A stretch of DNA of 64,000 nt from Arthrobacter sp. MYb214 (GTDB taxonomy: Bacteria; Actinomycetota; Actinomycetes; Actinomycetales; Micrococcaceae): contig NZ_PCPZ01000003.1 of assembly GCF_002979865.1 (NCBI RefSeq), positions 186,001 to 250,000 of the forward strand. Direction: 5' to 3'. Every line of letters starts with the position of its first letter. Position 1 is the stretch's first letter. The notes under the pieces were generated by a model, which saw nothing but the letters and a program-made list of their open reading frames with translations, did no database searches and was not told the DNA's origin. A program made the translations under genes and the position numbers. Below are positions 35,002 through 46,696 of this stretch, in pieces.

Positions 35002-37323
35002 TCAGCTATCCAGCGTGCGTCCAGGCTGCTGGGTGTGCTCGACGAAACGCACCATCATCGCCTTGAAACCCGGGGTGTTGGACTCGCGGGCCACCAGATC
35101 GCGGTGCACCAGCGCGTTGGCCTCCGGGTAGTAGGCCGCCACGCAGCCCTTGGCCGTCGGATAGGACACCAGGCGGAAGCGGTTCGCGCGGCGCTCGGAG
35201 CCGGCGAAGGTGGAAATCACGTCCACCAGGTCCCGGTCGCTGTACCCGGTCTCGGCCAGGTCCTCCGGGTTGATCAGGATGACGCGGCGGCCGTCCTTGA
35301 TCCCGCGGTAGCGGTCATCGAGCCCGTAGAAGGTGGTGTTGTACTGGTCGTGGCTGCGCATGGTCTGCAGGATCAAGTGGCCCTCGGGAGCCTCCAGCGC
35401 TTCGAAGTCCGAGACGGTGAAGCGGCCCTTGCCGATGTCCGTGGCAAAGGAGCGGGTATCGCGCGGCGGATTGGGCAGCACGAAGCCGTTCTTCTCCCGC
35501 ACCCGGGTGTTGAAGTCCTCGAAGCCGGGCAGCACCTTCTCGATGTGGTCGCGGATCACGTCGTAGTCCTCGGCCATGGCACGCCAGTTGACCGGGTGCC
35601 CATCGCCCAGGATGGCCTGGGCCATGCGGGCAACGATGACCGGCTCGGCCAGCAGGTGCTCGGAGACCGGGGTGAGCCGGCCGCGGGTGGACTTGATCAC
35701 CGACATGGAGTCCTCCACCGAAAGGAACTGCGCACCGGTGGGGTGCTTGTCGTCCTTGTCGGTGCGGCCCAGGGTCGGCAGGATCAGCGAGGTCTTGCCG
35801 TGCACCACATGCGAGCGGTTGGGCTTGGTGGAGATGTGCACGGTCAGCTTGGCACGCTGCATGCCCGCCTCCAGCGCTTCGGTGTCCGAATTGGCCAGGG
35901 CGAAGTTGCCGCCCATGGAGACGAACACGTCCACTTCGTCCTTCTCGAAGGCATGCAGGGCCTCGGTGGAATCGTAGCCGTGGGCGCGCGGGGATTCGAT
36001 GCCGAATTCGGCGTCCAGCGCTTCGAGCAGCTGCTCGCCGGGCTTCTCCCAGATGCCCATGGTGCGATCGCCCTGCACATTGGAGTGCCCGCGCACCGGG
36101 CAGGCGCCAGCACCTGGCTTGCCGAAGTTGCCCTGCAAAAGCAGCAGGTTGATGATTTCCTTCAGCGTCGGCACCGAGTGCGGCTGCTGGGTCAGGCCCA
36201 GCGCCCAGCAGATGATGGTGGCCTTGGACTTGGCAAGCAGCATCGCGATCTCGGTGATCTGGGTGCGGGTCAGTCCGGTGGCCTCCTCGGTAGCTTCCCA
36301 GTCCAAGGTGGCGCGCGCGGCCTGGTAGGCCTCGAACCCGTCGGTGACCGCGGCGATGAACTCGTGGTCCACCACGGTGCCCGGATGCTTCTTCTCTTCT
36401 TCGAGCAGCAGGTGGCCGAAGGCCTGGAACAGGGCCAGGTCGCCACCGACCTTGATCTGCAGGAAGTCGCTGGAAATCGGGTCGGCCTTGCCCAGCATGC
36501 CGCCCACGGTCTGCGGGTCCTTGAACCCGAAGAAGCCTGCCTCCGGCAGCGGGTTCACGGCAACGATGCGGGCGCCGCGCTTGCGCGCATCGGCCAGCGC
36601 GGAGAGCATGCGTGGATGGTTGGTGCCGGGGTTCTGGCCCACCACGAAGATCAGGTCCGCATGATCGAAGTCTTCCAATGACACGGTGCCCTTGCCGATG
36701 CCGATGGTCGGGTTCAGTGCGCTGCCCGAGGATTCGTGGCACATGTTCGAGCAGTCGGGCAGGTTGTTGGTGCCCAGCGAGCGGGCGAGCAGCTGGTACA
36801 TGAACGCGGTCTCGTTCGCGGTGCGCCCGGAGGTGTAGAACACGCACTTGTCCGGGGTGGTCGCGTTCACGTGCTCGGCGATGGTCGAGAAGGCCTGCGC
36901 CCAACTGATCGGGGAGTAGTGGGTCTCCCCCTCGCGAATGATCATCGGAGCGGTGATCCGGCCCTGCGAGCCCAGCCAGTATTCGGTCTTGTCGCGCAGG
37001 TCCTCGATGGAGTGCTGCGCAAACCACTCCGGGGTGACGGTGCGGGCGCTGGCTTCCTCGGCGATGGCCTTGGCGCCGTTCTCGCAGAACTCGGCGGGCT
37101 TGCGCTTGCCGGTGATGGATTCAGGCCACGCGCATCCCGGGCAGTCGAAGCCGTCGTGCTGGTTGACGCGCAGCATCGAACGCAGGGTACGCGACGGGCC
37201 GGCTTCGGCGAAGCCGCGCTCCATGGATACCATCACGGCCTTCAAGCCGGCGGCGGCGTGCTTGGGTTCGCTGACCTTCAGTTCATCTTCGTTGATGTCC
37301 TTTTTGGGTGCCGAACGATGCAT
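35002..37323 (-). CDS. FdhF/YdeP-family molybdopterin oxidoreductase (formate dehydrogenase-like)
   Basis: 773 aa. The N-terminal cluster region has CPGCAWPE and a third Cys in EFCENGAKA, the short cysteine pattern of the YdeP/FdhF group rather than the four-Cys site of NasC. The molybdenum ligand region reads CSNMCHESSG, with Cys where E. coli FdhH has selenocysteine. Further on are VGQNPGTNHPRMLS and GPNVQGDRTMG-like bis-MGD contacts. It is cotranscribed 57 bases after fdhD, which supports a formate dehydrogenase activity. AGGAGGG lies 4 bases before the ATG. Formate is the likely substrate but is not proven for YdeP-type enzymes. Confidence 0.82.
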   Translation of the reverse strand: MHRSAPKKDINEDELKVSEPKHAAAGLKAVMVSMERGFAEAGPSRTLRSMLRVNQHDGFDCPGCAWPESITGKRKPAEFCENGAKAIAEEASARTVTPEWFAQHSIEDLRDKTEYWLGSQGRITAPMIIREGETHYSPISWAQAFSTIAEHVNATTPDKCVFYTSGRTANETAFMYQLLARSLGTNNLPDCSNMCHESSGSALNPTIGIGKGTVSLEDFDHADLIFVVGQNPGTNHPRMLSALADARKRGARIVAVNPLPEAGFFGFKDPQTVGGMLGKADPISSDFLQIKVGGDLALFQAFGHLLLEEEKKHPGTVVDHEFIAAVTDGFEAYQAARATLDWEATEEATGLTRTQITEIAMLLAKSKATIICWALGLTQQPHSVPTLKEIINLLLLQGNFGKPGAGACPVRGHSNVQGDRTMGIWEKPGEQLLEALDAEFGIESPRAHGYDSTEALHAFEKDEVDVFVSMGGNFALANSDTEALEAGMQRAKLTVHISTKPNRSHVVHGKTSLILPTLGRTDKDDKHPTGAQFLSVEDSMSVIKSTRGRLTPVSEHLLAEPVIVARMAQAILGDGHPVNWRAMAEDYDVIRDHIEKVLPGFEDFNTRVREKNGFVLPNPPRDTRSFATDIGKGRFTVSDFEALEAPEGHLILQTMRSHDQYNTTFYGLDDRYRGIKDGRRVILINPEDLAETGYSDRDLVDVISTFAGSERRANRFRLVSYPTAKGCVAAYYPEANALVHRDLVARESNTPGFKAMMVRFVEHTQQPGRTLDS

Positions 37324-37380
37324 GAGACCCTCCTATTGGTAGCGCGGCCGGTACTGATATCCAGCTCACATATTACAAGG

Positions 37381-38208
37381 CTACGCCCTGATCACCCGAT
37401 CCGCATGTGTATAAATGTTCACGCTGTGCCTGCGGGAAAAAGCGGCCAGCGTCAGACCCGATTCCTCGGCCAGGTCAGCGGCCAGCGACGAGGGCGCACT
37501 GACCGCTGCGAGCACCGGAATTCCAGCCATCGCGGCCTTCTGCACCAGCTCGAAGGAGGCGCGTCCGGAGACCTGCAGGACGGTGTCGCCCAGCGGCAGC
37601 AACCCGTCGCGCAGGGCCGCTCCGATGACCTTGTCCACCGCATTATGACGCCCGACGTCTTCGCGCAGGATCAGCAATTCCCCGGCGGTGGAGAACAACC
37701 CGGCCGCGTGCACTCCCCCGGTAGCGGAGAACAGCTGCTGCGATTCGCGCAAGGTGTCAGGCATGCCCAGCAGCGTTTCCAGCCCAACCCGCCCCGATTC
37801 CGGGGAGGGTGCGAAGGCGGCTTTCTTGCGCACTTCGTCAATGGAGTTGGTGCCGCAGATCCCGCATGCTGAACTGGTGACCACATTGCGGGCAGCCAGG
37901 AGATCAGGATGCTTCGCCCCCGCGCCCAGCTGCACCTCGATGACGTTATAGGTCTGGTTGCCTGCTTCATCGGTGCCGGCGCAGTAGCGCAGGGAGGCCA
38001 GATGCTCGGGCGCGGAAATGATTCCCTCGCCCACCAGGAATCCGGTGACCATGTCGAAGTCGTCGCCCGGAGTGCGCATGGAGGTGGTGTAGGAGGTATG
38101 GCCGAAGCGGATCTCCAGCGGCTCCTCGCCAGCCAGCTTCTCCTCGCGGACGCGGGAGCCCTCCAGCGTTGCCCTGACCACGCGGCGGCGCACGATCTTG
38201 CGACCCAT
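37381..38208 (-). CDS. fdhD: Formate dehydrogenase sulfurtransferase FdhD
   Basis: 275 aa. FdhD moves sulfur from a cysteine desulfurase to the molybdenum cofactor before insertion into formate dehydrogenase. The active-site CGICGTNSI loop is at about residue 120, and the conserved GDDFDMVTGFLVGEG and REDVGRHNAVDKVIG blocks are intact. AAGGAG lies 7 bases before the ATG. It heads the operon that ends with the formate-dehydrogenase-like gene. Confidence 0.93.
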   Translation of the reverse strand: MGRKIVRRRVVRATLEGSRVREEKLAGEEPLEIRFGHTSYTTSMRTPGDDFDMVTGFLVGEGIISAPEHLASLRYCAGTDEAGNQTYNVIEVQLGAGAKHPDLLAARNVVTSSACGICGTNSIDEVRKKAAFAPSPESGRVGLETLLGMPDTLRESQQLFSATGGVHAAGLFSTAGELLILREDVGRHNAVDKVIGAALRDGLLPLGDTVLQVSGRASFELVQKAAMAGIPVLAAVSAPSSLAADLAEESGLTLAAFSRRHSVNIYTHADRVIRA

Positions 38209-38378: not shown

Positions 38379-40037
38379 CTAGCCTGCTTCGTTGCCGTCT
38401 CCACTCGGCGCTGCAGCTTCCAGCAAAGGTGCCTGCAGGCGCGTGTCGCAGCGCAGCTCCCTCATAAGCGACATCCCCAGCAGCGTCACAATCACCGTGA
38501 ACGGCACCGCCGAGAGGATGGCTGCCTGCTGCAGGGCCTCGAGCCCGCCCACCAGCAGCAACACGATCGCGCAGACGCCGGTGAGAAGTCCCCAGACCAC
38601 TAGGACCGGCCTCTTGGGGTACATATTTCCGCCGGAGGTCAGCGTGCCCAGAACATAGGTATTGGAATCCGCGCCGGTAATGAAGAACAGCACCACGAGA
38701 ATTACTGTGAATGCCGAGGTCACTTCCGGTATCGGCAGTTCGGCCAGCATCGCGAAGAAGGTGCTGTTGGTGTCTTCCAACGTTGCCTGGCCGATCCCAG
38801 AGCTGCCGGTCATCTCCTGGTGGATCGAGGTGCCACCGAAAATGCTGAACCAGATGCTGAAGACCAGAGACGGGACACCCATCACCGCAATAACGAATTC
38901 GCGAATGGTCCGGCCCTTGGAAATCCGCGCCAGGAAGATGCCGACGAAGGCGCCCCAGCTCAACCACCAGGCCATCATGAAGTACGTCCACCATTGCATC
39001 CACTGCAAGTCTTCGGCTCCAGAGGGAGTCAGCAGCGCCACGGCCGGGAACTCGCCCAGGAACTGCCCCATGGAACGGAAATAGATGTTGGAAATAAATC
39101 CGGTGGGACCGGAAACCAGGACGAAAACCCCGATGGCGGCGGCACCGATCATGGTGCCCTGGCTGAGCCATTTGATGCCCTTGCCAACGCCGGAAAGCGC
39201 CGAGAGAGTGAATACGATGGTAACGCCTGCAATGATCACGATCTTGACGAACAGATCCGTGGGAATCCCGAACAGGCTGTTCAGCCCCTCGGCGATTTGC
39301 GAAGCGCCCAAGCCCAGGGAAGTGGTCGTGCCGAAGAGGGTGGCCAGCACGGTGAACACGTCAATGGTCTTCCCGAGCCATCCGTCCATGGATTTTCCAA
39401 GAACTGGCCTGAGCATCACCGAGACGAGTCCCGAGTTGCCCCGGCGGTGCGTCGAGTAGGCAATGGCCAGGCCGAACACGCCGAACAAGGCCCAGGCGTT
39501 CGGACCCCAGTCGAAGTACGAGAACTGCAAGGCCAGCACTGCCGCATCCATGCTTTCCGGCTCCGCCCGTCCGTGCGGAGGGACCATGAAGTGGCTCATG
39601 GGTTCGGCCGCGCCATAGCTGATCAACCCGATGCCCATCACGGCACCGAGAATCATCGCGATCCAGGCCCATGTGGAGAACTCGGGCCGGTCCGCGTCCT
39701 TGCCCAGCCTGATGCCTCCGTAGCGCGAAAAGGCCAGGAACAGCATCAGCACGATGCAGCCGAGAGTCACCAACAGGTAGCTCCAGCCAATGTACTGCGC
39801 TGACCAGGTGGATGCCCCGGACATCAGTTCATTGAGCCGGCCCGGTGCAATAGCCGCCCAGAGCACGAACACCACGACCAGCGCCAGCGAAACGAAAAGG
39901 ACACTGCCCGGACGCTGGAGTTGCTTGTAGACCTGTTTCGATTCGTTCTTGTCCGCGGCCCGGCGCAATTTGCCGCCGGTGAGCGTGGGCCCTCCGCGTG
40001 GCCCCTTGCCCTGCTTTTCGTTGGTTTCGGTTTTCAT
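38379..40037 (-). CDS. BCCT-family zwitterion transporter
   Basis: 552 aa, about 12 helices. The betaine/choline/carnitine family signature is clear: WWLSWGAFVGIFLARISKGRTIREFV in two parts near residue 340, plus GIGLISYGAAEPMSHF and FSYFDWGPNAWALFG. These carriers take up compounds with a fixed positive nitrogen or sulfur and a carboxylate. It lies 44 bases after the flavin reductase fusion gene and shares its promoter, so it probably imports that pathway's substrate. The start is ATG 40037; a GTG 9 bases earlier is possible. Confidence 0.9.
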   Translation of the reverse strand: MKTETNEKQGKGPRGGPTLTGGKLRRAADKNESKQVYKQLQRPGSVLFVSLALVVVFVLWAAIAPGRLNELMSGASTWSAQYIGWSYLLVTLGCIVLMLFLAFSRYGGIRLGKDADRPEFSTWAWIAMILGAVMGIGLISYGAAEPMSHFMVPPHGRAEPESMDAAVLALQFSYFDWGPNAWALFGVFGLAIAYSTHRRGNSGLVSVMLRPVLGKSMDGWLGKTIDVFTVLATLFGTTTSLGLGASQIAEGLNSLFGIPTDLFVKIVIIAGVTIVFTLSALSGVGKGIKWLSQGTMIGAAAIGVFVLVSGPTGFISNIYFRSMGQFLGEFPAVALLTPSGAEDLQWMQWWTYFMMAWWLSWGAFVGIFLARISKGRTIREFVIAVMGVPSLVFSIWFSIFGGTSIHQEMTGSSGIGQATLEDTNSTFFAMLAELPIPEVTSAFTVILVVLFFITGADSNTYVLGTLTSGGNMYPKRPVLVVWGLLTGVCAIVLLLVGGLEALQQAAILSAVPFTVIVTLLGMSLMRELRCDTRLQAPLLEAAAPSGDGNEAG

Positions 40038-40081
40038 GGCTCTCACACTTCGTTGTATTGGAGGAATCTGCCGACGCCGGG

Positions 40082-41056
40082 CTATAGCGCGGTCAGTTCG
40101 GCGCCGTCGTAGAACCGGCCGGCCTTGTAGACCATCGGCTCAAGCTGGGCGACTTCGGAATGCTTTACCTTGGCGATGAACACGGTATGGGTCTTGGCTT
40201 GGAAGCGCTCCTTGATTTCTGCTTCGATGGAAGCGGCCGAGCCATCGATCAGCGGGCTGCCGTTCGGCCCCTGATGCCATTCGAGCTCGGCGAACTTGTC
40301 ATCACCCTTGGAAGCGAAGGTGCCCACGGTGTCGCGCTGCCCGTTGCTCATGATGTTGATGCCCAGATGGGTGGACTTGAACAGCGATGCATAGGTGCTG
40401 GTGGTCTTCTGCACGCACACCAGCACCAGAGGCGGCTCGAGCGAAACTGACACATATGAATTTGCGGCTAGCCCGCGAGGCTTGCCATGTTCATCCATGG
40501 TGGTCACGACAGTCACGCCGGTAATGAATTGGCGGTTGAACCCCTTGAGCGCATCGAGATTCGGCACGCCGCTCAAATCGTCCACTACCACGCCATCATC
40601 CGTGGACTCGAAGGCGGACTTGAGCGATGGGACCCCCACGTCTTCGAGCAGCTCGCTCTGGTCCCAAGTCACCTGCTCCGAGATGATTTTCCCGTCCTGG
40701 ACTTCCATCAGGTTGGAACCGCGGGTCTCCACGGTGTTGCCCGTGGCCGGCACACCCTGCAGATCGTTGGTGAACGTTCCGGTGGTGTGCCAGAAAATCG
40801 CGATGGACTGCTCCTGCTCATCCACGAGCAGATGGTCGATTTTTGTCACCAGATCAGGGAAGGCCTCCCGCACGGACAAAATCTCTTGCTTCAGCTCTCG
40901 GATGGTGGTGACGTTTTTGGATTTCTTGCTGATTCGCCGGAAGTCCGCGTGGAAGATCTCGTCCAGTGCATCGACCTGGCCCCGATCCCATGCCGCTTCC
41001 CAGGCGTTGACGAGTGATTCTTTGACAGGCTGGAGTGAATTTACAATTTGTTGCAT
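40082..41056 (-). CDS. SnoaL-like domain fused to flavin reductase
   Basis: 324 aa. Residues about 8-135 are a SnoaL/ester-cyclase-like NTF2 fold (EAAWDRGQVDALDEIFHADF, FWHTTGTFTND). Residues about 165-324 are a flavin reductase-like domain of the HpaC/RutF type (FITGVTVVTTMDEHGKPRGL, SYVSVSLEPPLVLVCV, the small-residue FMN site, and HTVFIAKV). The reductase would supply reduced flavin to the luciferase-like monooxygenase of the divergent operon. The SnoaL part may act on the ring-opened product. Start ATG 41056 overlaps the TTGCATGCAA operator at 41051-41060. The fusion is unusual: these domains normally occur alone. Confidence 0.85.
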   Translation of the reverse strand: MQQIVNSLQPVKESLVNAWEAAWDRGQVDALDEIFHADFRRISKKSKNVTTIRELKQEILSVREAFPDLVTKIDHLLVDEQEQSIAIFWHTTGTFTNDLQGVPATGNTVETRGSNLMEVQDGKIISEQVTWDQSELLEDVGVPSLKSAFESTDDGVVVDDLSGVPNLDALKGFNRQFITGVTVVTTMDEHGKPRGLAANSYVSVSLEPPLVLVCVQKTTSTYASLFKSTHLGINIMSNGQRDTVGTFASKGDDKFAELEWHQGPNGSPLIDGSAASIEAEIKERFQAKTHTVFIAKVKHSEVAQLEPMVYKAGRFYDGAELTAL

Positions 41057-41060
41057 GCAA
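41051..41060. promoter_or_regulatory. GntR operator O1 (TTGCATGCAA)
   Basis: Perfect 10-base palindrome covering the start codon of the SnoaL-flavin reductase gene (the first codons of that gene read through it). One of three related sites in the divergent gap; binding here would block that operon. Confidence 0.6.
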
Positions 41061-41123
41061 GAAATGCTAGCAAAGGTTGTGACGGAGTCAACATGTTTCA
41101 GGAAATTCTCTTAAATTTAGCGG

Positions 41124-41144
41124 ATTCAAGGCGATTCCTTGAAT
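41124..41144. promoter_or_regulatory. Inverted repeat in the gntR promoter gap
   Basis: Perfect 8-bp arms, ATTCAAGG (41124-41131) and CCTTGAAT (41137-41144), around a 5-base spacer. It has a different sequence from the GntR sites and ends 5 bases before O2. It may be a second operator or a promoter-proximal structure. Confidence 0.4.
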
Positions 41145-41149
41145 TTCTG

Positions 41150-41190
41150 TTGCATACAAGAGAATCTATGGATAGAGTTCTTGTATGCAA
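41150..41190. promoter_or_regulatory. GntR operators O2 and O3 (TTGCATACAA / TTGTATGCAA)
   Basis: TTGCATACAAG at 41150-41160 and its exact reverse complement CTTGTATGCAA at 41180-41190, 19 bases apart. Both match O1 at one half. The pair covers the presumed promoter and the ribosome site of gntR. FadR-type GntR proteins bind such TTGYATRCAA palindromes, so autoregulation is likely. Confidence 0.65.
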
Positions 41191-41202
41191 GAGAGTTCAA
41201 GC

Positions 41203-41883
41203 GTGGAATCAAAAACCAGGAGCACCCCGGAGACGCCGTTGCTGGGCCGGCTCCGTCAAATGATCGTCACTGGAGTTGTTCAACCCGGAGACCTATTGGC
41301 AGAGACAGCCCTGGCGCAAGACTTCGAGGTCAGCCGTACTCCAATTCGAGAAGCATTGAAGCAGCTGGAGCGCGAGGGCCTAGTTGAGGTGCGTTCGCGG
41401 GTTGGAACATTCGTCAGGAAGCCCACCCAGCGCGAAATTCACGAGATGTTTTCCCTGAAGGAGGCCTTCGAGGGACTAGCCGCTGGCCTGCTGGCCAGAC
41501 GTGGAGCCGTACCTGAATTGGAGCAGCTCAAGGAAAACGTTGCACGCAGCCAACGGGCCGTCGAGCGCGGCGACGCGGAACTCTATTCGCAACTGGTCCA
41601 TGAATTCCACAGCACGTTGGTTGCCGGGGCTGACAACAGGAAGCTCACCGAGCACTATGACCTGTTGATGAACCAGCTGGCCTACCATCGCATCGTTTCG
41701 CAGACCCTGAGCTTGCCCGGGCGCTTGCAGAATTCGAAGGACGAGCACCAGGCAATCATCGACGCCATCAGCTCCAAAGATCCGTTGGCCGCAGAACTTG
41801 TGATGCGCAGGCATGTTGCCGCATCAAGCCAGTCGGCGGCCCTGGCCGCAATGAAAGAAGAAGACGAAGAACAACCGGGTTAG
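41203..41883 (+). CDS. GntR-family regulator, FCD (FadR) subfamily
   Basis: 226 aa from the GTG at 41203, which has AAGAGAG 7 bases upstream. An ATG at 41185 lies inside operator O3 and has no ribosome site. Winged helix at about residues 12-75 (ETALAQDFEVSRTPIREALKQLEREG), then an FCD helical effector domain with metal-site residues (Asp/His around LVHEFHSTLVAGADN and DEHQAIIDAI, last His in MRRHV). It would sense a carboxylate intermediate and control both its own operon and the divergent flavin reductase/BCCT genes. Confidence 0.88.
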   Translation: MESKTRSTPETPLLGRLRQMIVTGVVQPGDLLAETALAQDFEVSRTPIREALKQLEREGLVEVRSRVGTFVRKPTQREIHEMFSLKEAFEGLAAGLLARRGAVPELEQLKENVARSQRAVERGDAELYSQLVHEFHSTLVAGADNRKLTEHYDLLMNQLAYHRIVSQTLSLPGRLQNSKDEHQAIIDAISSKDPLAAELVMRRHVAASSQSAALAAMKEEDEEQPG

Positions 41884-41913
41884 CCCCAAAATAGCCATGC
41901 AAAGGAATACCAG

Positions 41914-42582
41914 ATGAATTCTCCACTGGCCCAGCCGCCTCAGCTCATTGATTTGAGCACCCGATCAACGCTCGAAGACTACCAGGATTTGGCCCAGGCC
42001 ATTGGTTTGCGCAAAATCTCGTGCACGGTGGAAGAAGTTCCCCACCACGAATTAGGCAGCATCACCCGCGCGACCGCCACCGCAGTCATCCCCAATCCTT
42101 GGCTCGGCACCGGAACGTCGCAAGATTTATCCGAGCGGACCGAGGCCATCGCCCCATTGCTGGCCAAGCTGCTGTCGGATCGCCTGCTCAATGCCCTGGG
42201 CGGAGCCGAACAAGTTGAAGCTTTCGGCAAGGCCGCATTGGTTGGCAGCGATGGGGAATTGGAGCATGCCGGAGCGCTGATCCACACCCCGTTCTTCGGC
42301 AACCTGCTGCGCGAAGCCCTCGGCGGCACCTCGATCATCTGCTTTGTCGACGGTCGCGGCGTTCCTGGTGAATCCCTGCGAGTACCGATGTGGCATAAGA
42401 CCGCAGCTGCCACCCGAACCCACTACCAGACCCTGGAGCTGTCCTTGCCCGATGCCCCGCATGCTGGCGAGATCGCGGTCATTGCCGCGGCATCAAGCGG
42501 CCCCCGGCCACATGCACGCATCGGCGATCGAACCACCGACCGAACGGTCACTTCCGAAATACTGAAGGGAATACAACTATGA
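41914..42582 (+). CDS. AA_synth (PF06684, former DUF1185) protein 1
   Basis: 222 aa. The sequence is clearly related to the next gene: shared NPW-G, GKAALVGSDGELEHAGALIHT, FGN-x2-R and DAPHAGEI blocks. The family is annotated only as 'amino acid synthesis' and has no established reaction that I know of. It occurs beside flavin monooxygenases and aldehyde dehydrogenases in degradation clusters. The conserved Glu-His pair and the LIHT segment look like active-site or metal residues. AAAGGA lies 7 bases before the ATG. It overlaps the next gene by 4 bases. Confidence 0.75.
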   Translation: MNSPLAQPPQLIDLSTRSTLEDYQDLAQAIGLRKISCTVEEVPHHELGSITRATATAVIPNPWLGTGTSQDLSERTEAIAPLLAKLLSDRLLNALGGAEQVEAFGKAALVGSDGELEHAGALIHTPFFGNLLREALGGTSIICFVDGRGVPGESLRVPMWHKTAAATRTHYQTLELSLPDAPHAGEIAVIAAASSGPRPHARIGDRTTDRTVTSEILKGIQL

Positions 42583-43130
42583 ACTACCGCAAACTGGTAA
42601 CCATCGTCGAGGAAATTGCCACAGAGGGCGGACGCCCGGTGGATCCGGTAGCCCGCGTGGTCATTGTCGCCGCCGTATTCGACAACCCGTGGGCAGGGCA
42701 AGGATTCGTCGAGGACTTGAACCCGGGAATCGACTCGGCAGCCTCGGACCTCGGAGCGCTGCTGGCACCGCGGGTCATCGAAGCGCTGGGCGCCCCGCTC
42801 CAGGCCTATGGCAAGGCTGCAATCGTCGGCCTTGACGGTGAAGTCGAGCACGGCTCGGCCCTGATCCACACCCTGAAATTCGGCAACCACTTCCGCGACG
42901 CAGCCAAGGCCACCACCTTGCTGCCGGCCGTGGAAAAGCGCGGACAGGCCGGAGTGCAGTTCGACATCCCGCTCAAGCATTTCACCGATGCCACGATCCG
43001 CTCGCACCACCAGAGCGTCGAGGCCAGGATCGCCGATGCTCCGCATCCTGGCGAAATCCTGATCGCCCTGGCCGGCGCAACCCGTGGCCGGCCGCAGGAA
43101 CGCCTGGCCCCGCTGTCCACCGAACAGTAG
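42579..43130 (+). CDS. AA_synth (PF06684) protein 2
   Basis: 183 aa, a shorter paralogue of the preceding product with the same core (YGKAAIVGLDGEVEHGSALIHT, KFGNHFRDA, ADAPHPGEI). The ATGA overlap with its partner implies equal expression and suggests a hetero-oligomer. It keeps the Glu-His pair. The function is unknown; a hydrolase or isomerase step on a ring-opened intermediate is a guess from the neighbours. Confidence 0.75.
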   Translation: MNYRKLVTIVEEIATEGGRPVDPVARVVIVAAVFDNPWAGQGFVEDLNPGIDSAASDLGALLAPRVIEALGAPLQAYGKAAIVGLDGEVEHGSALIHTLKFGNHFRDAAKATTLLPAVEKRGQAGVQFDIPLKHFTDATIRSHHQSVEARIADAPHPGEILIALAGATRGRPQERLAPLSTEQ

Positions 43131-43164
43131 CAGAGCGCATCAGCCGGAACGGAGCGAAGCACGC

Positions 43165-43917
43165 ATGACAAGCACGAAGCAGCCATTGGTTGTCCTCCTG
43201 CATGGAGTCGGATTGGACCGGGCCATGTGGAAGCCGCTGCGCGAGCAGCTGGCGCACGAATCAGTGGCCCTGGACCTGCCTGGGCACGGGTTACGCCCGC
43301 CCCTGCGCAGCGAGCAGAATCTGGCGAGCTTGGCCGCCGATGTGCTCGAACGCCTTGAAACTCGCGAGCCTGTGCATCTTGTGGGATTCTCGCTCGGTGC
43401 CTTGGTTGCCCAGTACCTTGCGCGCTTCGCTCCCGGGCGCGTGCTGACCTTGTCTGCGGTGAACTCCGTATGCCGGCGCACCGCCGAAGAGTCGGCCGCG
43501 GTGGAAGAGCGCCTGGCTACCGCCGGCACGAACTTCTCCCAGGGAGTGGACCGCGCCATCGAACGCTGGTTCCCGGCCGCGGCCACCACGGTGGACGCGC
43601 AGCTCATCGAGGCTACGCGCCAAACTATGGCGGGCAACGATCTCGAATCCTATCTGCACGCCTACGCGGTTTTTGCCCGCGGTGACCAGGAGATTGCCGG
43701 CGAACTCGATGCGATCAAGCAGCCGACACTGGCCATCACCGGCGAGCTGGATCCCGGATCGACCCCGCAGATGTCCCGCCGGTTGGTTGCCGCCGTGCCT
43801 CATGGGCGGCTGCGCATCATCCCCGGAGCACGGCACATGCTTCCGGTCGAGAATCCGCGAGCTTTGGCCGCGGAATTAAACAGTTTTTTCAGCGATAACG
43901 AAGGGAAACAGGCATGA
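43165..43917 (+). CDS. Alpha/beta hydrolase
   Basis: 250 aa from the ATG at 43165 (GGAG 10 bases upstream); the longer in-frame version starts inside the previous gene. Oxyanion HGVG at residue about 13, nucleophile elbow GFSLGA near 79, acid in GELDPGS near 197, catalytic His in GARHMLPVE near 225. This is a complete Ser-Asp-His triad of the lactonase/esterase kind. In trigonelline degradation a hydrolase of this fold cleaves the N-formyl ring-opened product; the same task is proposed here from context. Overlaps the aldehyde dehydrogenase start. Confidence 0.82.
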   Translation: MTSTKQPLVVLLHGVGLDRAMWKPLREQLAHESVALDLPGHGLRPPLRSEQNLASLAADVLERLETREPVHLVGFSLGALVAQYLARFAPGRVLTLSAVNSVCRRTAEESAAVEERLATAGTNFSQGVDRAIERWFPAAATTVDAQLIEATRQTMAGNDLESYLHAYAVFARGDQEIAGELDAIKQPTLAITGELDPGSTPQMSRRLVAAVPHGRLRIIPGARHMLPVENPRALAAELNSFFSDNEGKQA

Positions 43918-45398
43918 GCGAGCGTTACATGCATTTCATCAACGGCGAGCACATTGCTCCCAGCGAAGACCGTTTCTTCACCAGCACCAACCCGGCGACC
44001 CTCGATGAGCTTTACGAGGCCGCGCGTGGCAATGCCGAAGACGTGGATCGCGCAGTCAAGGCCGCCCACGAGGCATTCTCCGCACCCTCGTGGAGCACCC
44101 TGAGCGCTACCGCCCGCGGGCATCTGCTGCGCCGCCTGGGCGATCTGATCGGCGAGAACGCCGAGAAGCTGGCCCGCTTCGAATCCCTGGACAATGGCAA
44201 GCTGCTGCGCGAAATGCGCGGCCAGCTGGCCACCCTGCCCGAGTACCTCTACTACTATGCGGGACTGGCTGACAAGGTGCAGGGCGCCCAGATCCCGAGC
44301 ATGAACCCGGCGATCTTGAACTACACCCAGCGCGAAGCATTGGGCGTGGTCGGAGCCATTACCCCCTGGAACTCGCCGCTAACGCTGACCACCTCGAAAA
44401 TCGCCCCGGCGCTGGCTGCTGGCAATACCGTGGTAATCAAGCCGAGCGAGTACACCTCGCGGACCGTGCTGCTGCTGGCAGAGCTGGCAGACCAGGCCGG
44501 ATTCCCTCCGGGCGTCATCAACGTTGTCACCGGCTTTGGAGCCGAGGCCGGCGCCGCGCTGGTCAGCCACCCGCTGCTGGCCAAGATCTCCTTCACCGGT
44601 TCCACTGCCACCGGCTCGAAAATCGCCGCCGAGGCCGCCAGCCGCTTCATCGGCTGCACCCTGGAACTGGGCGGCAAGAGCCCGAACATCGTCTTCGATG
44701 ACGCCAACGTCGCCAATGCGGCCATGGGCGTGGTGGCCGGAATCTACGCCGCGGCCGGCCAGACCTGCATTGCCGGCAGCCGGGTCTTCGCCCACAGGTC
44801 TGTCTACGACGAGCTGCTGGAACGGGTTACCGAACGTGCCAAGTCCATTGTCATCGGAGATCCGCTCTCCGATGCCACCGAGCTAGGCCCGCTGGCGTTC
44901 GCCGACCAATTGGAAAAGGTCGCTTCCTATGTGAAGATCGGCGCAGACGAGGGCGCCAAAGTACTGGCCGGCGGCACCCGCCCCGAAGGCCTGGACCTGC
45001 CGGGCTACTATTTCTCCCCCACCGTGCTCACCGACGTCAATAACGACATGCGCGTGGTCCGCGAGGAGATCTTCGGCCCGGTGGCTGCGATCATGCCCTT
45101 CGAGCACGAAGACGAGCTGCTGTCCATGGCCAATGACACCGAGTACGGGCTGGCCGCCGGCGTGTGGACGCAGAACCTTGCCCGCGCCCATCGCATGGCC
45201 CGGAGGCTGGAGGCCGGCACGATCTGGGTGAACACCTACCGCGCGATGTCCCCGATGTCCCCTCGCCAAGGCTTCAAGAACTCGGGCGTTGGCATCGAGC
45301 ACGGCCTGGAATCCATGAACGAATACACCCGCCTCAAGAGCGTATGGATCAACACCGACGAGTCCCCCGTCGCAGATCCGTTTGTGATGCGCGGCTAA
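43914..45398 (+). CDS. NAD(P)-dependent aldehyde dehydrogenase
   Basis: 494 aa, the usual length. Cofactor-binding WNSPLTLTTSKIAPALAAGN near residue 152, catalytic Glu in LELGGKSPN near 250, catalytic Cys in GQTCIAGSR near 284, and the EIFGPVAAIMPF block near 385 are all intact. It oxidises an aldehyde or semialdehyde intermediate to a carboxylate. Its nearest named relatives are betaine-aldehyde and hydroxymuconic-semialdehyde types, but specificity cannot be read from sequence. Coupled to the hydrolase by ATGA. Confidence 0.88.
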   Translation: MSERYMHFINGEHIAPSEDRFFTSTNPATLDELYEAARGNAEDVDRAVKAAHEAFSAPSWSTLSATARGHLLRRLGDLIGENAEKLARFESLDNGKLLREMRGQLATLPEYLYYYAGLADKVQGAQIPSMNPAILNYTQREALGVVGAITPWNSPLTLTTSKIAPALAAGNTVVIKPSEYTSRTVLLLAELADQAGFPPGVINVVTGFGAEAGAALVSHPLLAKISFTGSTATGSKIAAEAASRFIGCTLELGGKSPNIVFDDANVANAAMGVVAGIYAAAGQTCIAGSRVFAHRSVYDELLERVTERAKSIVIGDPLSDATELGPLAFADQLEKVASYVKIGADEGAKVLAGGTRPEGLDLPGYYFSPTVLTDVNNDMRVVREEIFGPVAAIMPFEHEDELLSMANDTEYGLAAGVWTQNLARAHRMARRLEAGTIWVNTYRAMSPMSPRQGFKNSGVGIEHGLESMNEYTRLKSVWINTDESPVADPFVMRG

Positions 45399-45412
45399 GG
45401 AAAGGGAACCCC

Positions 45413-45619
45413 ATGCCACTGATCGATGTATCCATTGCCAAGGGCCGCAGCCCCCGGCAGCTGCGCGCCCTGATCGACGCCTTGCACCGGGCCGCCGAAG
45501 AAACCGTTGATGCGGCCCCCGAGAACATCACAGTCATCGTGCGCGAAGTCGACCATGAACATTGGTCCCGGACCAACCAAACCATCGCCGAACGCAACCG
45601 CACCCAGGCAACTGCCTAA
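45413..45619 (+). CDS. 4-oxalocrotonate tautomerase-like protein
   Basis: 68 aa. The mature N-terminal Pro (MPLIDVSIAKGRSPRQLRAL) acts as the general base in this family, which moves double bonds in unsaturated oxo-acids. The second half (ENITVIVREVDHEHWS) is the expected beta-hairpin region with the conserved Arg/Glu. AAGGAAAGG precedes the ATG at a good distance. It lies 14 bases after the aldehyde dehydrogenase. A role in rearranging an unsaturated ring-opened intermediate fits. Confidence 0.82.
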   Translation: MPLIDVSIAKGRSPRQLRALIDALHRAAEETVDAAPENITVIVREVDHEHWSRTNQTIAERNRTQATA

Positions 45620-45649
45620 GGGCAGCAGAGCAACGAAAGAAGGACAGAT

Positions 45650-46696
45650 ATGCGCTTTTCACTGTTCATCCACATGGAACGCTATGACGACTCGATCAGC
45701 CACGCACAGCATTTCGAGAACCTCGTCGAACTGACTCAAATGGCCGAAGCCGGTGGCTTCTCCACAGTCTGGATCGGCGAACACCACTCGATGGAATACA
45801 CCGTCTCCCCGAACCCGATCCCGCAGCTTGCTTACCTCGCGGCTCGGACCTCCACGATCCGGCTCGGAGCCGGCACCATCATCGCACCATTCTGGAACCC
45901 GATCCGAGCAGCCGGCGAACTCGCGCTGCTCGATGTCATCAGCAATGGCCGTGCCGAATTAGGCGTGGCACGCGGTGCCTACCAATTCGAATTCGATCGC
46001 ATGACCGATGGCATGAAGGCCACCGACGGCGGAGCCTCCATGCAGGAGCTCATCCCGGCAGTCAAGAAGCTTTGGGAGGGCGATTACGCCCACGACGGAG
46101 AAGTCTGGCAGTTCCCGACGTCCACTTCGGTGCCCAAGCCCGCGCAAAAGCAGATCCCTGTCTGGGTTGCCGCCCGCAGCCCCGAGTCACACGAGTACGC
46201 TGTGGCCAACGGGTGCCACGTCATGGTGACCCCGCTGATGAAGGGCGACGAAGAAGTCGAATCATTGGTCCAGAAGTACGAAGCCGCCATTGCCGCCCAC
46301 CCGGAGGTGCAACAGCGCCCCGACATCATGGTGCTTCGCCACACCTATCTGCACTCCGCCAACGAGCCAGAGGCCTGGCGCCCGGCCGCCGAAGGCATCA
46401 ACAAGTTCTACCGCACCTTCGATGCGGTCTTCGGCAACAAGGCGGAGCCGGTCAACGGCTTCATCGATCCCAGCCCGGAGGAGAAGTTCTCCGAACGCGA
46501 GGAATTCACCCCTGAGTCCCTGCACCGCACCGCAATGATCGGCACACCGGACGTGGTTGTTGAGCGACTGCGCCACTACGAAGATCTGGGCGTCAGCGAA
46601 TACAGCTTCTGGAGCGACAACGCCCTGAGCCACGAGGAAAAGAAACGCTCGCTGAAGTTGTTCATTGACGAAGTTGTGCCGAATTTCGTGAAGTAG
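45650..46696 (+). CDS. Luciferase-like flavin-dependent monooxygenase
   Basis: 348 aa, bacterial luciferase-like TIM barrel with class I features (FENLVELTQMAEAGGFSTVWIGEHH; VAARSPESHEYAVANG). These enzymes use reduced flavin from a separate reductase to insert oxygen. In TgnA/TgnB (trigonelline) and in Arthrobacter pyridine degradation such pairs open N-heterocyclic rings. The reductase here would be the SnoaL fusion on the divergent unit. AAGGA lies 5 bases before the ATG. Last gene of the GntR-headed operon. I rate the family certain and the ring-opening role inferred. Confidence 0.85.
   Translation: MRFSLFIHMERYDDSISHAQHFENLVELTQMAEAGGFSTVWIGEHHSMEYTVSPNPIPQLAYLAARTSTIRLGAGTIIAPFWNPIRAAGELALLDVISNGRAELGVARGAYQFEFDRMTDGMKATDGGASMQELIPAVKKLWEGDYAHDGEVWQFPTSTSVPKPAQKQIPVWVAARSPESHEYAVANGCHVMVTPLMKGDEEVESLVQKYEAAIAAHPEVQQRPDIMVLRHTYLHSANEPEAWRPAAEGINKFYRTFDAVFGNKAEPVNGFIDPSPEEKFSEREEFTPESLHRTAMIGTPDVVVERLRHYEDLGVSEYSFWSDNALSHEEKKRSLKLFIDEVVPNFVK

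What the first reader, a model, noticed from the sequence alone, without database searches (positions are those of the whole stretch)
38379..46696. Putative N-heterocyclic betaine degradation system
A BCCT carrier and a flavin reductase diverge from an operon with a luciferase-like monooxygenase, alpha/beta hydrolase, aldehyde dehydrogenase, tautomerase and two AA_synth proteins, all under one GntR-type regulator. Trigonelline degradation uses a flavin reductase/luciferase-like oxygenase pair, dehydrogenase and hydrolase to open the pyridine ring, releasing formate and methylamine; Arthrobacter pyridine degradation is similar. Here the carrier implies a zwitterion, and formate dehydrogenase genes lie next door at 35002-38208. 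The two AA_synth proteins and the tautomerase are not part of those known routes, so a new variant or substrate is likely.
Basis: partly seen in the sequence, partly recalled or inferred. Interest (0 to 1): 0.82.

Follow-up and report, generated by a model that had tools for sequence, protein, structure and literature searches.

The report
Actinobacterial trigonelline-type ring-opening operon
A soil actinobacterium (Glutamicibacter-like) carries a gene set that most likely imports a plant betaine such as trigonelline and splits its pyridine ring for food; it looks like a Gram-positive variant of a pathway already worked out in Acinetobacter, with a different carrier and some extra parts.

Summary
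The genes are real and in the stated order. The core enzymes have counterparts in Proteobacterial tgn (trigonelline) clusters: oxygenase LLM 50% identical to annotated TgnB of Acinetobacter sp. PK01, reductase domain 42%, ALDH 46%, hydrolase 32%, AA_synth 43-47%. The tautomerase, second AA_synth and SnoaL-fused reductase are real differences from the 10 TgnB-clade loci examined. The carrier (BCCT or NCS1) varies in both groups, with low identity between groups (38% and 26%). In the oxygenase, 39 of 41 conserved barrel-strand positions are identical between actinobacterial and TgnB sets, against 26 and 24 of 41 for two other AA_synth-linked clades, which favours the same substrate. Of 80 fetched actinobacterial loci 73 are complete; 72 of these carry BCCT and/or NCS1. 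Three of the genome's eight TTGYATRCAA palindromes sit at the divergent promoter. The neighbouring 'formate dehydrogenase' is YdeP-type and linked in 4 of 73 loci. The substrate is not proven. New variant of a known kind.

The parts
38379..40046 (-). BCCT carrier; proposed importer of the zwitterionic substrate
   Evidence: Pfam BCCT 562 bits; of 5 NCBIfam models matched only the BCCT subfamily model is over its cut-off; BCCT in 49 of 73 loci, NCS1 in 23 of the other 24
40082..41056 (-). Flavin reductase (TgnA role) with N-terminal SnoaL-like domain
   Evidence: Pfam SnoaL 15-138, Flavin_Reduct 175-317; reductase domain 42.2% to PK01 TgnA
41051..41060 (.). Palindrome TTGCATGCAA, proposed GntR operator (overlaps the reductase start)
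41150..41159 (.). Palindrome TTGCATACAA, proposed GntR operator
41181..41190 (.). Palindrome TTGTATGCAA, proposed GntR operator (overlaps the gntR start)
41185..41883 (+). GntR/FCD regulator, proposed local repressor
   Evidence: Pfam GntR and FCD
41914..42582 (+). AA_synth 1 (TgnF-like)
   Evidence: Pfam 168 bits; 46.5% to PK01 AA_synth over 155 aa
42579..43130 (+). AA_synth 2 (TgnF-like)
   Evidence: Pfam 199 bits; 42.8% to PK01 AA_synth, 39.8% to AA_synth 1
43165..43917 (+). Alpha/beta hydrolase (TgnD role)
   Evidence: Abhydrolase_6; 32.0-38.3% to the hydrolases of five tgn-clade clusters
43914..45398 (+). Aldehyde dehydrogenase (TgnC role)
   Evidence: Aldedh 571 bits; 45.5-48.6% to five TgnC-position ALDHs against 35.7-36.7% to three SSADHs
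45413..45619 (+). 4-OT-type tautomerase, extra in the actinobacterial loci
   Evidence: Pfam Tautomerase; residue 1 after Met is Pro, 11 is Arg, 39 is Thr (the role of these residues is recalled)
45650..46696 (+). Luciferase-like monooxygenase (TgnB role), proposed ring-opening oxygenase
   Evidence: Bac_luciferase 216 bits; 50.4% to PK01 TgnB; AlphaFold model with TIM barrel, pLDDT 85.6

Best explanation
It is the actinobacterial form of the trigonelline (N-methylnicotinate) catabolic operon. BCCT imports the betaine. The SnoaL-flavin reductase makes reduced flavin, the luciferase-like oxygenase uses it with O2 to cut the pyridinium ring, the ALDH oxidises the resulting aldehyde/lactol to the N-formyl enamide diacid, and the hydrolase splits that to formate, methylamine, CO2 and succinate semialdehyde, which a chromosomal SSADH elsewhere oxidises to succinate. 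The two AA_synth proteins act late, like TgnF, which is reported to stimulate the semialdehyde step. The tautomerase probably isomerises the first product (Z/E or lactol/aldehyde). The GntR protein represses both divergent units through the TTGYATRCAA sites until substrate or product binds. Shown: homology, gene order, conservation, and the placing of the palindromes. Inferred: each reaction (chemistry recalled from the published route), the carrier's cargo, operator binding and the tautomerase step.
For: Annotated tgnA-tgnB-tgnC with AA_synth, hydrolase and SSADH in Acinetobacter sp. PK01, identities. TgnF is an AA_synth homologue (PMC7913881 passages). S. meliloti pSymA has the same enzyme types plus SSADH between noeB and nifT. 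A TgnB-clade operon with a BCCT in Thioclava. Oxygenase: of 110 columns conserved within both sets 101 are identical; 39 of 41 in barrel strands plus three residues, where two other clades match 26 and 24. SSADH in the own genome 82% identical to the SSADH beside the A. dokdonellae cluster. Eight TTGYATRCAA places in the 3.72 Mb genome, control pattern 0, three of the eight at this promoter; the pattern in 27 of 44 divergent loci.
Against: No functional data. In the oxygenase tree the actinobacterial rows do not group with TgnB to the exclusion of the Agrobacterium-type pair; the outgroup is very distant, so rooting is poor. Identity is also high outside the barrel (62 of 69 conserved columns), so the 39 of 41 is not a clean test of the pocket. 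The hydrolase is only 32% identical to PK01's. Carriers match by family only: BCCT 38% to Thioclava's, A. dokdonellae NCS1 26% to PK01's. No SSADH in the operon. The reductase has another architecture than PK01's. PK01 TgnB is an annotation by name; the tested A. baylyi proteins were not obtained. Genome G008 has a partial LLM match and no AA_synth. The palindrome was not found in 17 of 44 loci, and several of the 27 are close kin.
Confidence: 0.64

Rival explanations
1. Same ring-opening chemistry, other N-methyl- or N-alkyl-pyridinium carboxylate (for example N-methylisonicotinate or homarine), with the tautomerase and the second AA_synth needed for a different product.
For: Actinobacteria form their own oxygenase group; tautomerase in 68 of 73 and second AA_synth in 73 of 73 loci, neither in the 10 TgnB-clade loci examined; carriers of the two groups are only 26-38% identical; other AA_synth-linked LLM clades with other carriers exist.
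Against: 39 of 41 conserved barrel positions identical to the TgnB set; the same carrier families, NCS1 and BCCT, recur in both groups. For homarine, PMC8269262 (passages) judges TgnA/TgnB unlikely to act for steric reasons.
Confidence: 0.24
2. Degradation of an uncharged N-heterocycle such as pyridine, as in Arthrobacter sp. 68b (recalled), or a Rut-like pyrimidine route.
For: Same host group and similar enzyme types (recalled); flavin reductase, hydrolase and LLM are also the kinds used by Rut (recalled).
Against: A BCCT-type carrier is not expected for pyridine (inference); RutF and RutD models score far below cut-off (69.5 vs 254.75 and 39.8 vs 238.5 bits). The Pyr proteins were not obtained, so no sequence comparison was made.
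Confidence: 0.07
3. Unrelated substrate (terpenoid or aromatic Baeyer-Villiger type cleavage).
For: The LLM also matches luciferase, RslO1 and diketocamphane monooxygenase; none of the 25 NCBIfam models shown (of 29) reaches its cut-off for the LLM.
Against: Those are 16-26% identical in the 50 rows listed by the fold search, against 50% for annotated TgnB; the whole gene set matches tgn.
Confidence: 0.05

Closest known systems
Trigonelline (tgn) degradation cluster, Acinetobacter (Perchat 2018, abstract recalled, paper not held; PK01 cluster seen)
   Same: Two-component flavin oxygenase, ALDH, alpha/beta hydrolase, AA_synth, and a GntR gene beside it in PK01
   Different: In PK01: one AA_synth instead of two, no tautomerase and no SnoaL domain found, NCS1 instead of BCCT, SSADH beside the cluster
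S. meliloti pSymA cluster between noeB and nifT (perhaps the old trc trigonelline region, recalled)
   Same: GntR, AA_synth, hydrolase, reductase, LLM, ALDH
   Different: ABC carrier, NIPSNAP protein, SSADH included
Agrobacterium pAt and R. leguminosarum p3 LLM-AA_synth clusters
   Same: Reductase, ALDH, LLM, hydrolase and AA_synth together
   Different: LLM of L104 43.7% to the window and 15 of 41 conserved barrel positions changed; ProXWV (L104) or amino acid ABC (L105) genes nearby; substrate unknown
Arthrobacter sp. 68b pyridine (pyr) cluster (recalled)
   Same: Two-component flavin ring-opening oxygenase, dehydrogenases, amidohydrolase (recalled)
   Different: Sequences not obtained; not compared

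Membership tests
Trigonelline (Tgn) pathway | Luciferase-like oxygenase of the TgnB kind | tested here: met
   50.4% to annotated TgnB of PK01; 101 of 110 conserved columns identical; but the tree does not settle orthology
Trigonelline (Tgn) pathway | Flavin reductase partner | tested here: met
   Reductase domain 42.2% to PK01 TgnA; domain architecture differs
Trigonelline (Tgn) pathway | TgnC-type aldehyde dehydrogenase | tested here: met
   45.5-48.6% to five TgnC-position ALDHs, 35.7-36.7% to three SSADHs
Trigonelline (Tgn) pathway | Alpha/beta hydrolase (TgnD) | tested here: inconclusive
   Same fold family, 32.0-38.3% to five cluster hydrolases
Trigonelline (Tgn) pathway | TgnE succinate semialdehyde dehydrogenase beside the cluster | tested here: not met
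   None in the cluster; a candidate elsewhere in the genome, 44% to PK01's and 82% to the one beside the A. dokdonellae cluster. Linkage, not presence, fails
Trigonelline (Tgn) pathway | AA_synth protein (TgnF) | tested here: met
   Two copies; that TgnF is of this family rests on PMC7913881 passages and on the PK01 cluster
Trigonelline (Tgn) pathway | Growth on and enzymatic turnover of trigonelline | not testable with these tools
   Needs the bench
Rut pyrimidine pathway | RutF and RutD equivalogs | tested here: not met
   69.5 of 254.75 and 39.8 of 238.5 bits
Arthrobacter pyr pathway | Homology to PyrA-E | not tested
   Paper not held; sequences not obtained

The most novel reading that the evidence does not exclude
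AA_synth (DUF1185) proteins are true catalysts of a step shared by many N-heterocycle pathways, acting on the formyl-dicarboxylate (2-formylsuccinate type) or enamine left after ring opening, for example as decarboxylase or tautomerase; the reported 'stimulation' of the SSADH step by TgnF would then be supply of its substrate. In actinobacteria this step is done by an AA1/AA2 pair together with a tautomerase, and BCCT is a newly recognised trigonelline carrier.
Probability: 0.2. Interest if true: 0.68.

Novelty: new variant of a known kind. Interest (0 to 1): 0.42.

Why it matters
Trigonelline is a plant and marine betaine. If the reading is right, Gram-positive soil bacteria (Arthrobacter, Glutamicibacter, Streptomyces, Mycobacterium, Leucobacter and others among the 80 loci) have a dedicated route of their own. 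It also offers a compact system to test what the AA_synth family does; in the few other loci looked at it lies near amidohydrolases, molybdenum hydroxylases, a 6-hydroxynicotinate reductase or nucleoside hydrolases.

Tried and rejected
Considered and rejected: (1) Formate dehydrogenase as a pathway part. FdhF and FdhD are linked in L011, L013, L014 and L015 only (4 of 73) and the enzyme is YdeP-type; a YdeP-type gene also lies near the Pantoea cluster, which I treat as coincidence without a test. (2) A wider GntR regulon: the five other TTGYATRCAA places were looked at as ORF lists only. Four lie inside listed ORFs (one at the very start of its ORF), one lies 36 bp upstream of an ORF that looks CoA-transferase-like by eye; no family search was made, and nothing pathway-related was recognised. 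(3) Methylamine genes: the genome has one copper amine oxidase and three glutamine-synthetase-like genes, none near the cluster; other methylamine routes were not searched. (4) That the TgnA C-terminal region is a NUDIX domain like the separate NUDIX gene of A. dokdonellae: Pfam found only the reductase domain and blastp gave E 0.4, so it is not claimed. (5) Papers: nine searches. Perchat 2018 and Casaite 2020 are not held and their content is recalled. I saw passages of PMC2954203, PMC7913881, PMC8269262, PMC9151330, PMC10346144 and PMC11381245, otherwise listings only. No title or abstract in those listings described this actinobacterial cluster; most subscription papers are not in the library.

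Limits: one search keeps the best 80 of 296 confirmed relatives found by short peptide patterns, so the loci lean to close kin. Seven of the 80 (L022, L024, L029, L030, L043, L075, L089) were dropped from the counts because the locus ends too near. Presence there means a tblastn match anywhere in the fetched locus (BCCT and NCS1 at 35% identity or more), not adjacency. In one search only five candidates a genome were scored. The 'barrel' set is eight DSSP strands of the model plus three residues each, not a measured pocket; model residues 47-52 and 112-114 are below pLDDT 50. The TgnB set there is 10 sequences, the other clades two and one. S. meliloti 2011 (L097) is in the tree but was left out. 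On rereading I lowered the main confidence from 0.66 to 0.64 and raised the first rival from 0.22 to 0.24, because the carriers of the two groups are alike only at family level.
Full report
What is there. The window holds a divergent gene set. On the - strand: a BCCT carrier (38379-40046) and a flavin reductase with an N-terminal SnoaL domain (40082-41056). On the + strand: a GntR/FCD regulator (41185-41883), two AA_synth proteins, an alpha/beta hydrolase (start 43165), an aldehyde dehydrogenase, a small tautomerase and a luciferase-like monooxygenase (LLM) ending at 46696. Gaps between the + strand genes are -4 to 34 bp. In the own genome (3.72 Mb, 19 contigs) these are the only two AA_synth matches, while 16 luciferase-family matches exist.

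How widespread. A genome scan with the LLM kept the best 80 of 296 confirmed relatives; by their titles all 80 are actinobacterial, 70-95% identical, the nearest Glutamicibacter nicotianae at 95%. Seven loci are too short to judge. In the other 73, SnoaL, reductase, AA1, AA2, hydrolase, ALDH and LLM were found in 73, GntR in 72, tautomerase in 68. Carriers in the fetched locus: BCCT only 41, NCS1 (cytosine permease family) only 23, both 8, neither 1. So BCCT looks like one of two alternative carriers. Within the genus 11 of 18 genomes, the own one included, have the LLM; in an even draw of the phylum 3 of 396 at E 1e-45, one of them the own genome. It is therefore an accessory trait. One of the three (G008) has a partial LLM match and no AA_synth in the genome, a case against strict linkage.

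What it resembles. AA_synth was formerly DUF1185; [quoted passage not shown] PMC7913881 (passages) says that TgnF of Acinetobacter baylyi, which stimulates TgnE-dependent succinate semialdehyde oxidation, is homologous to such a protein. On a plasmid of Acinetobacter sp. PK01 I then found a cluster annotated tgnA (reductase), tgnB (oxygenase) and tgnC (dehydrogenase) with AA_synth, hydrolase, an NCS1 carrier and SSADH, and with purU, folD and sarcosine-oxidase genes upstream. Window versus PK01: LLM 50.4%, reductase domain 42.2%, ALDH 45.5% (36.6% to the SSADH), hydrolase 32.0%, AA1 46.5%, AA2 42.8%. A like set lies on S. meliloti pSymA between noeB and nifT, with transposase genes on both sides and an SSADH, and in Leisingera, Burkholderia multivorans, Pantoea, Klebsiella, Mesorhizobium and Thioclava. 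The Thioclava operon has a BCCT beside it, 38% identical to the window's; the NCS1 of Arthrobacter dokdonellae is 26% identical to PK01's. From memory, not read here: the published route cuts trigonelline between C5 and C6 and ends in methylamine, formate, CO2 and succinate semialdehyde; and trigonelline genes of S. meliloti were mapped to the symbiotic region of pSym. The A. baylyi paper is not held. PMC8269262 (passages) names TgnA/TgnB as the ring-opening oxygenase system and doubts, for steric reasons, that it acts on homarine.

Same substrate or not. A tree of 101 LLM rows (98 different) shows the actinobacterial rows, a TgnB group and an Agrobacterium-type pair; the last two lie together beyond a well supported branch (100/99), with long branches and a very distant outgroup, so the tree does not settle orthology. 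Site comparison says more. Of 110 columns conserved within both the actinobacterial set (82 rows) and the TgnB set (10 rows), 101 carry the same residue. In the eight barrel strands of the AlphaFold model (pLDDT 85.6) plus three residues each, 39 of 41 are the same; the Agrobacterium-type pair matches 26 and an Aminobacter LLM 24 of these 41. A further actinobacterial LLM (G208), 50% identical and with tandem AA_synth, matches 35. Against this: outside the barrel the figure is also high (62 of 69), so this is not a test of the pocket alone. I read it as favouring the same reaction and probably the same substrate. The model's nearest solved structures are bacterial luciferase and RslO1, 16-26% identical in the 50 rows listed.

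What differs from tgn. By tblastn none of the 10 TgnB-clade loci examined (L092-L095, L098-L100, L106-L108) gave a tautomerase, a SnoaL domain or a second AA_synth of this kind. Six of the ten (L094, L095, L098, L099, L100, L108) have a DUF1330 protein and one (L092) a NIPSNAP protein; that such small proteins take the place of the tautomerase is a guess. The window tautomerase has Pro1 and Arg11 but Thr at 39. In a 12-sequence AA_synth alignment that includes both copies, both share the invariant RK, E.EH, R.H and D.P motifs with the ten others. There is no SSADH in the operon, but the own genome has one 82% identical to the SSADH that sits beside the A. dokdonellae cluster; 12 of 73 loci carry an SSADH of at least 50% identity.

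Regulation. TTGYATRCAA occurs at eight places in the own genome, the control pattern at none; three of the eight are at 41051, 41150 and 41181, in the divergent promoter. The pattern was found between reductase and gntR in 27 of 44 loci with that divergent arrangement, several of them close kin, and not in 17 (the scan left out the bases next to the start codons). This makes a local GntR operator likely; binding is not shown.

Formate. The neighbours at 35002-38208 are an FdhF/YdeP-family oxidoreductase and FdhD. The former scores 911 bits for that family (cut-off 582) but 264 for formate dehydrogenase alpha (cut-off 666), and the pair is linked in 4 of 73 loci. It is not good evidence for formate release.

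AA_synth elsewhere. It also occurs next to 6-hydroxynicotinate reductase, UPF0280 and near an amidohydrolase (two copies, Sulfitobacter), next to a molybdenum hydroxylase and amidohydrolase (Thermomicrobium), near nucleoside hydrolases, an isochorismatase-type hydrolase and a hydantoinase (S. medicae), and in Bosea beside a hydrolase, ALDH and aldo/keto reductase. These loci were picked by hand, so this is a lead only. It suggests a role after N-heterocycle opening; 2-formylsuccinate in the trigonelline route and 2-formylglutarate in the hydroxynicotinate route are alike (recalled or inferred chemistry), hence the novel case. Against it: PMC7913881 reports that attempts to see a stimulating effect of the AA_synth protein HcdD failed.

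Verdict. Observation confirmed. Interpretation right in kind, wrong about AA_synth and overdrawn about a new substrate. New variant of a known kind; substrate most likely trigonelline, not proven.

Noticed in passing
L096 9411-10576: Tandem AA_synth pair beside 6-hydroxynicotinate reductase and UPF0280, near a molybdenum hydroxylase and an amidohydrolase, in Sulfitobacter: AA_synth pairs are not limited to LLM clusters.
   Followed up: partly
L104 6466-12255; L105 3681-11276; L154 2058-7597: Further LLM/reductase/ALDH/hydrolase/AA_synth clusters whose oxygenases differ at many conserved barrel positions, one near ProXWV and one with RidA and CoA-type genes: probably sister pathways of unknown substrate.
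   Followed up: partly
L106 7205-9004; L107 5205-7004: In two Mesorhizobium clusters the hydrolase gene is 1800 bases long, no separate reductase is annotated, and the TgnA C-terminal region matches inside it: it looks like a hydrolase-reductase fusion.
   Followed up: no
CP060162.1 342217-342816 (hit H143): AA_synth on an Acinetobacter venetianus plasmid record is 100% identical to that of Pantoea eucrina: recent transfer or a contaminated record.
   Followed up: no
L091 2342-6388: The A. dokdonellae plasmid carries SSADH, riboflavin kinase, NUDIX and an NCS1 carrier beside the cluster, the kinase perhaps for FMN supply; NUDIX was found in 7 and riboflavin kinase in 3 of 73 loci.
   Followed up: partly
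own genome C13:405969-409133: A third glutamine-synthetase-like gene close to an aldehyde dehydrogenase match, a candidate for gamma-glutamyl amine use; not linked to the cluster.
   Followed up: no
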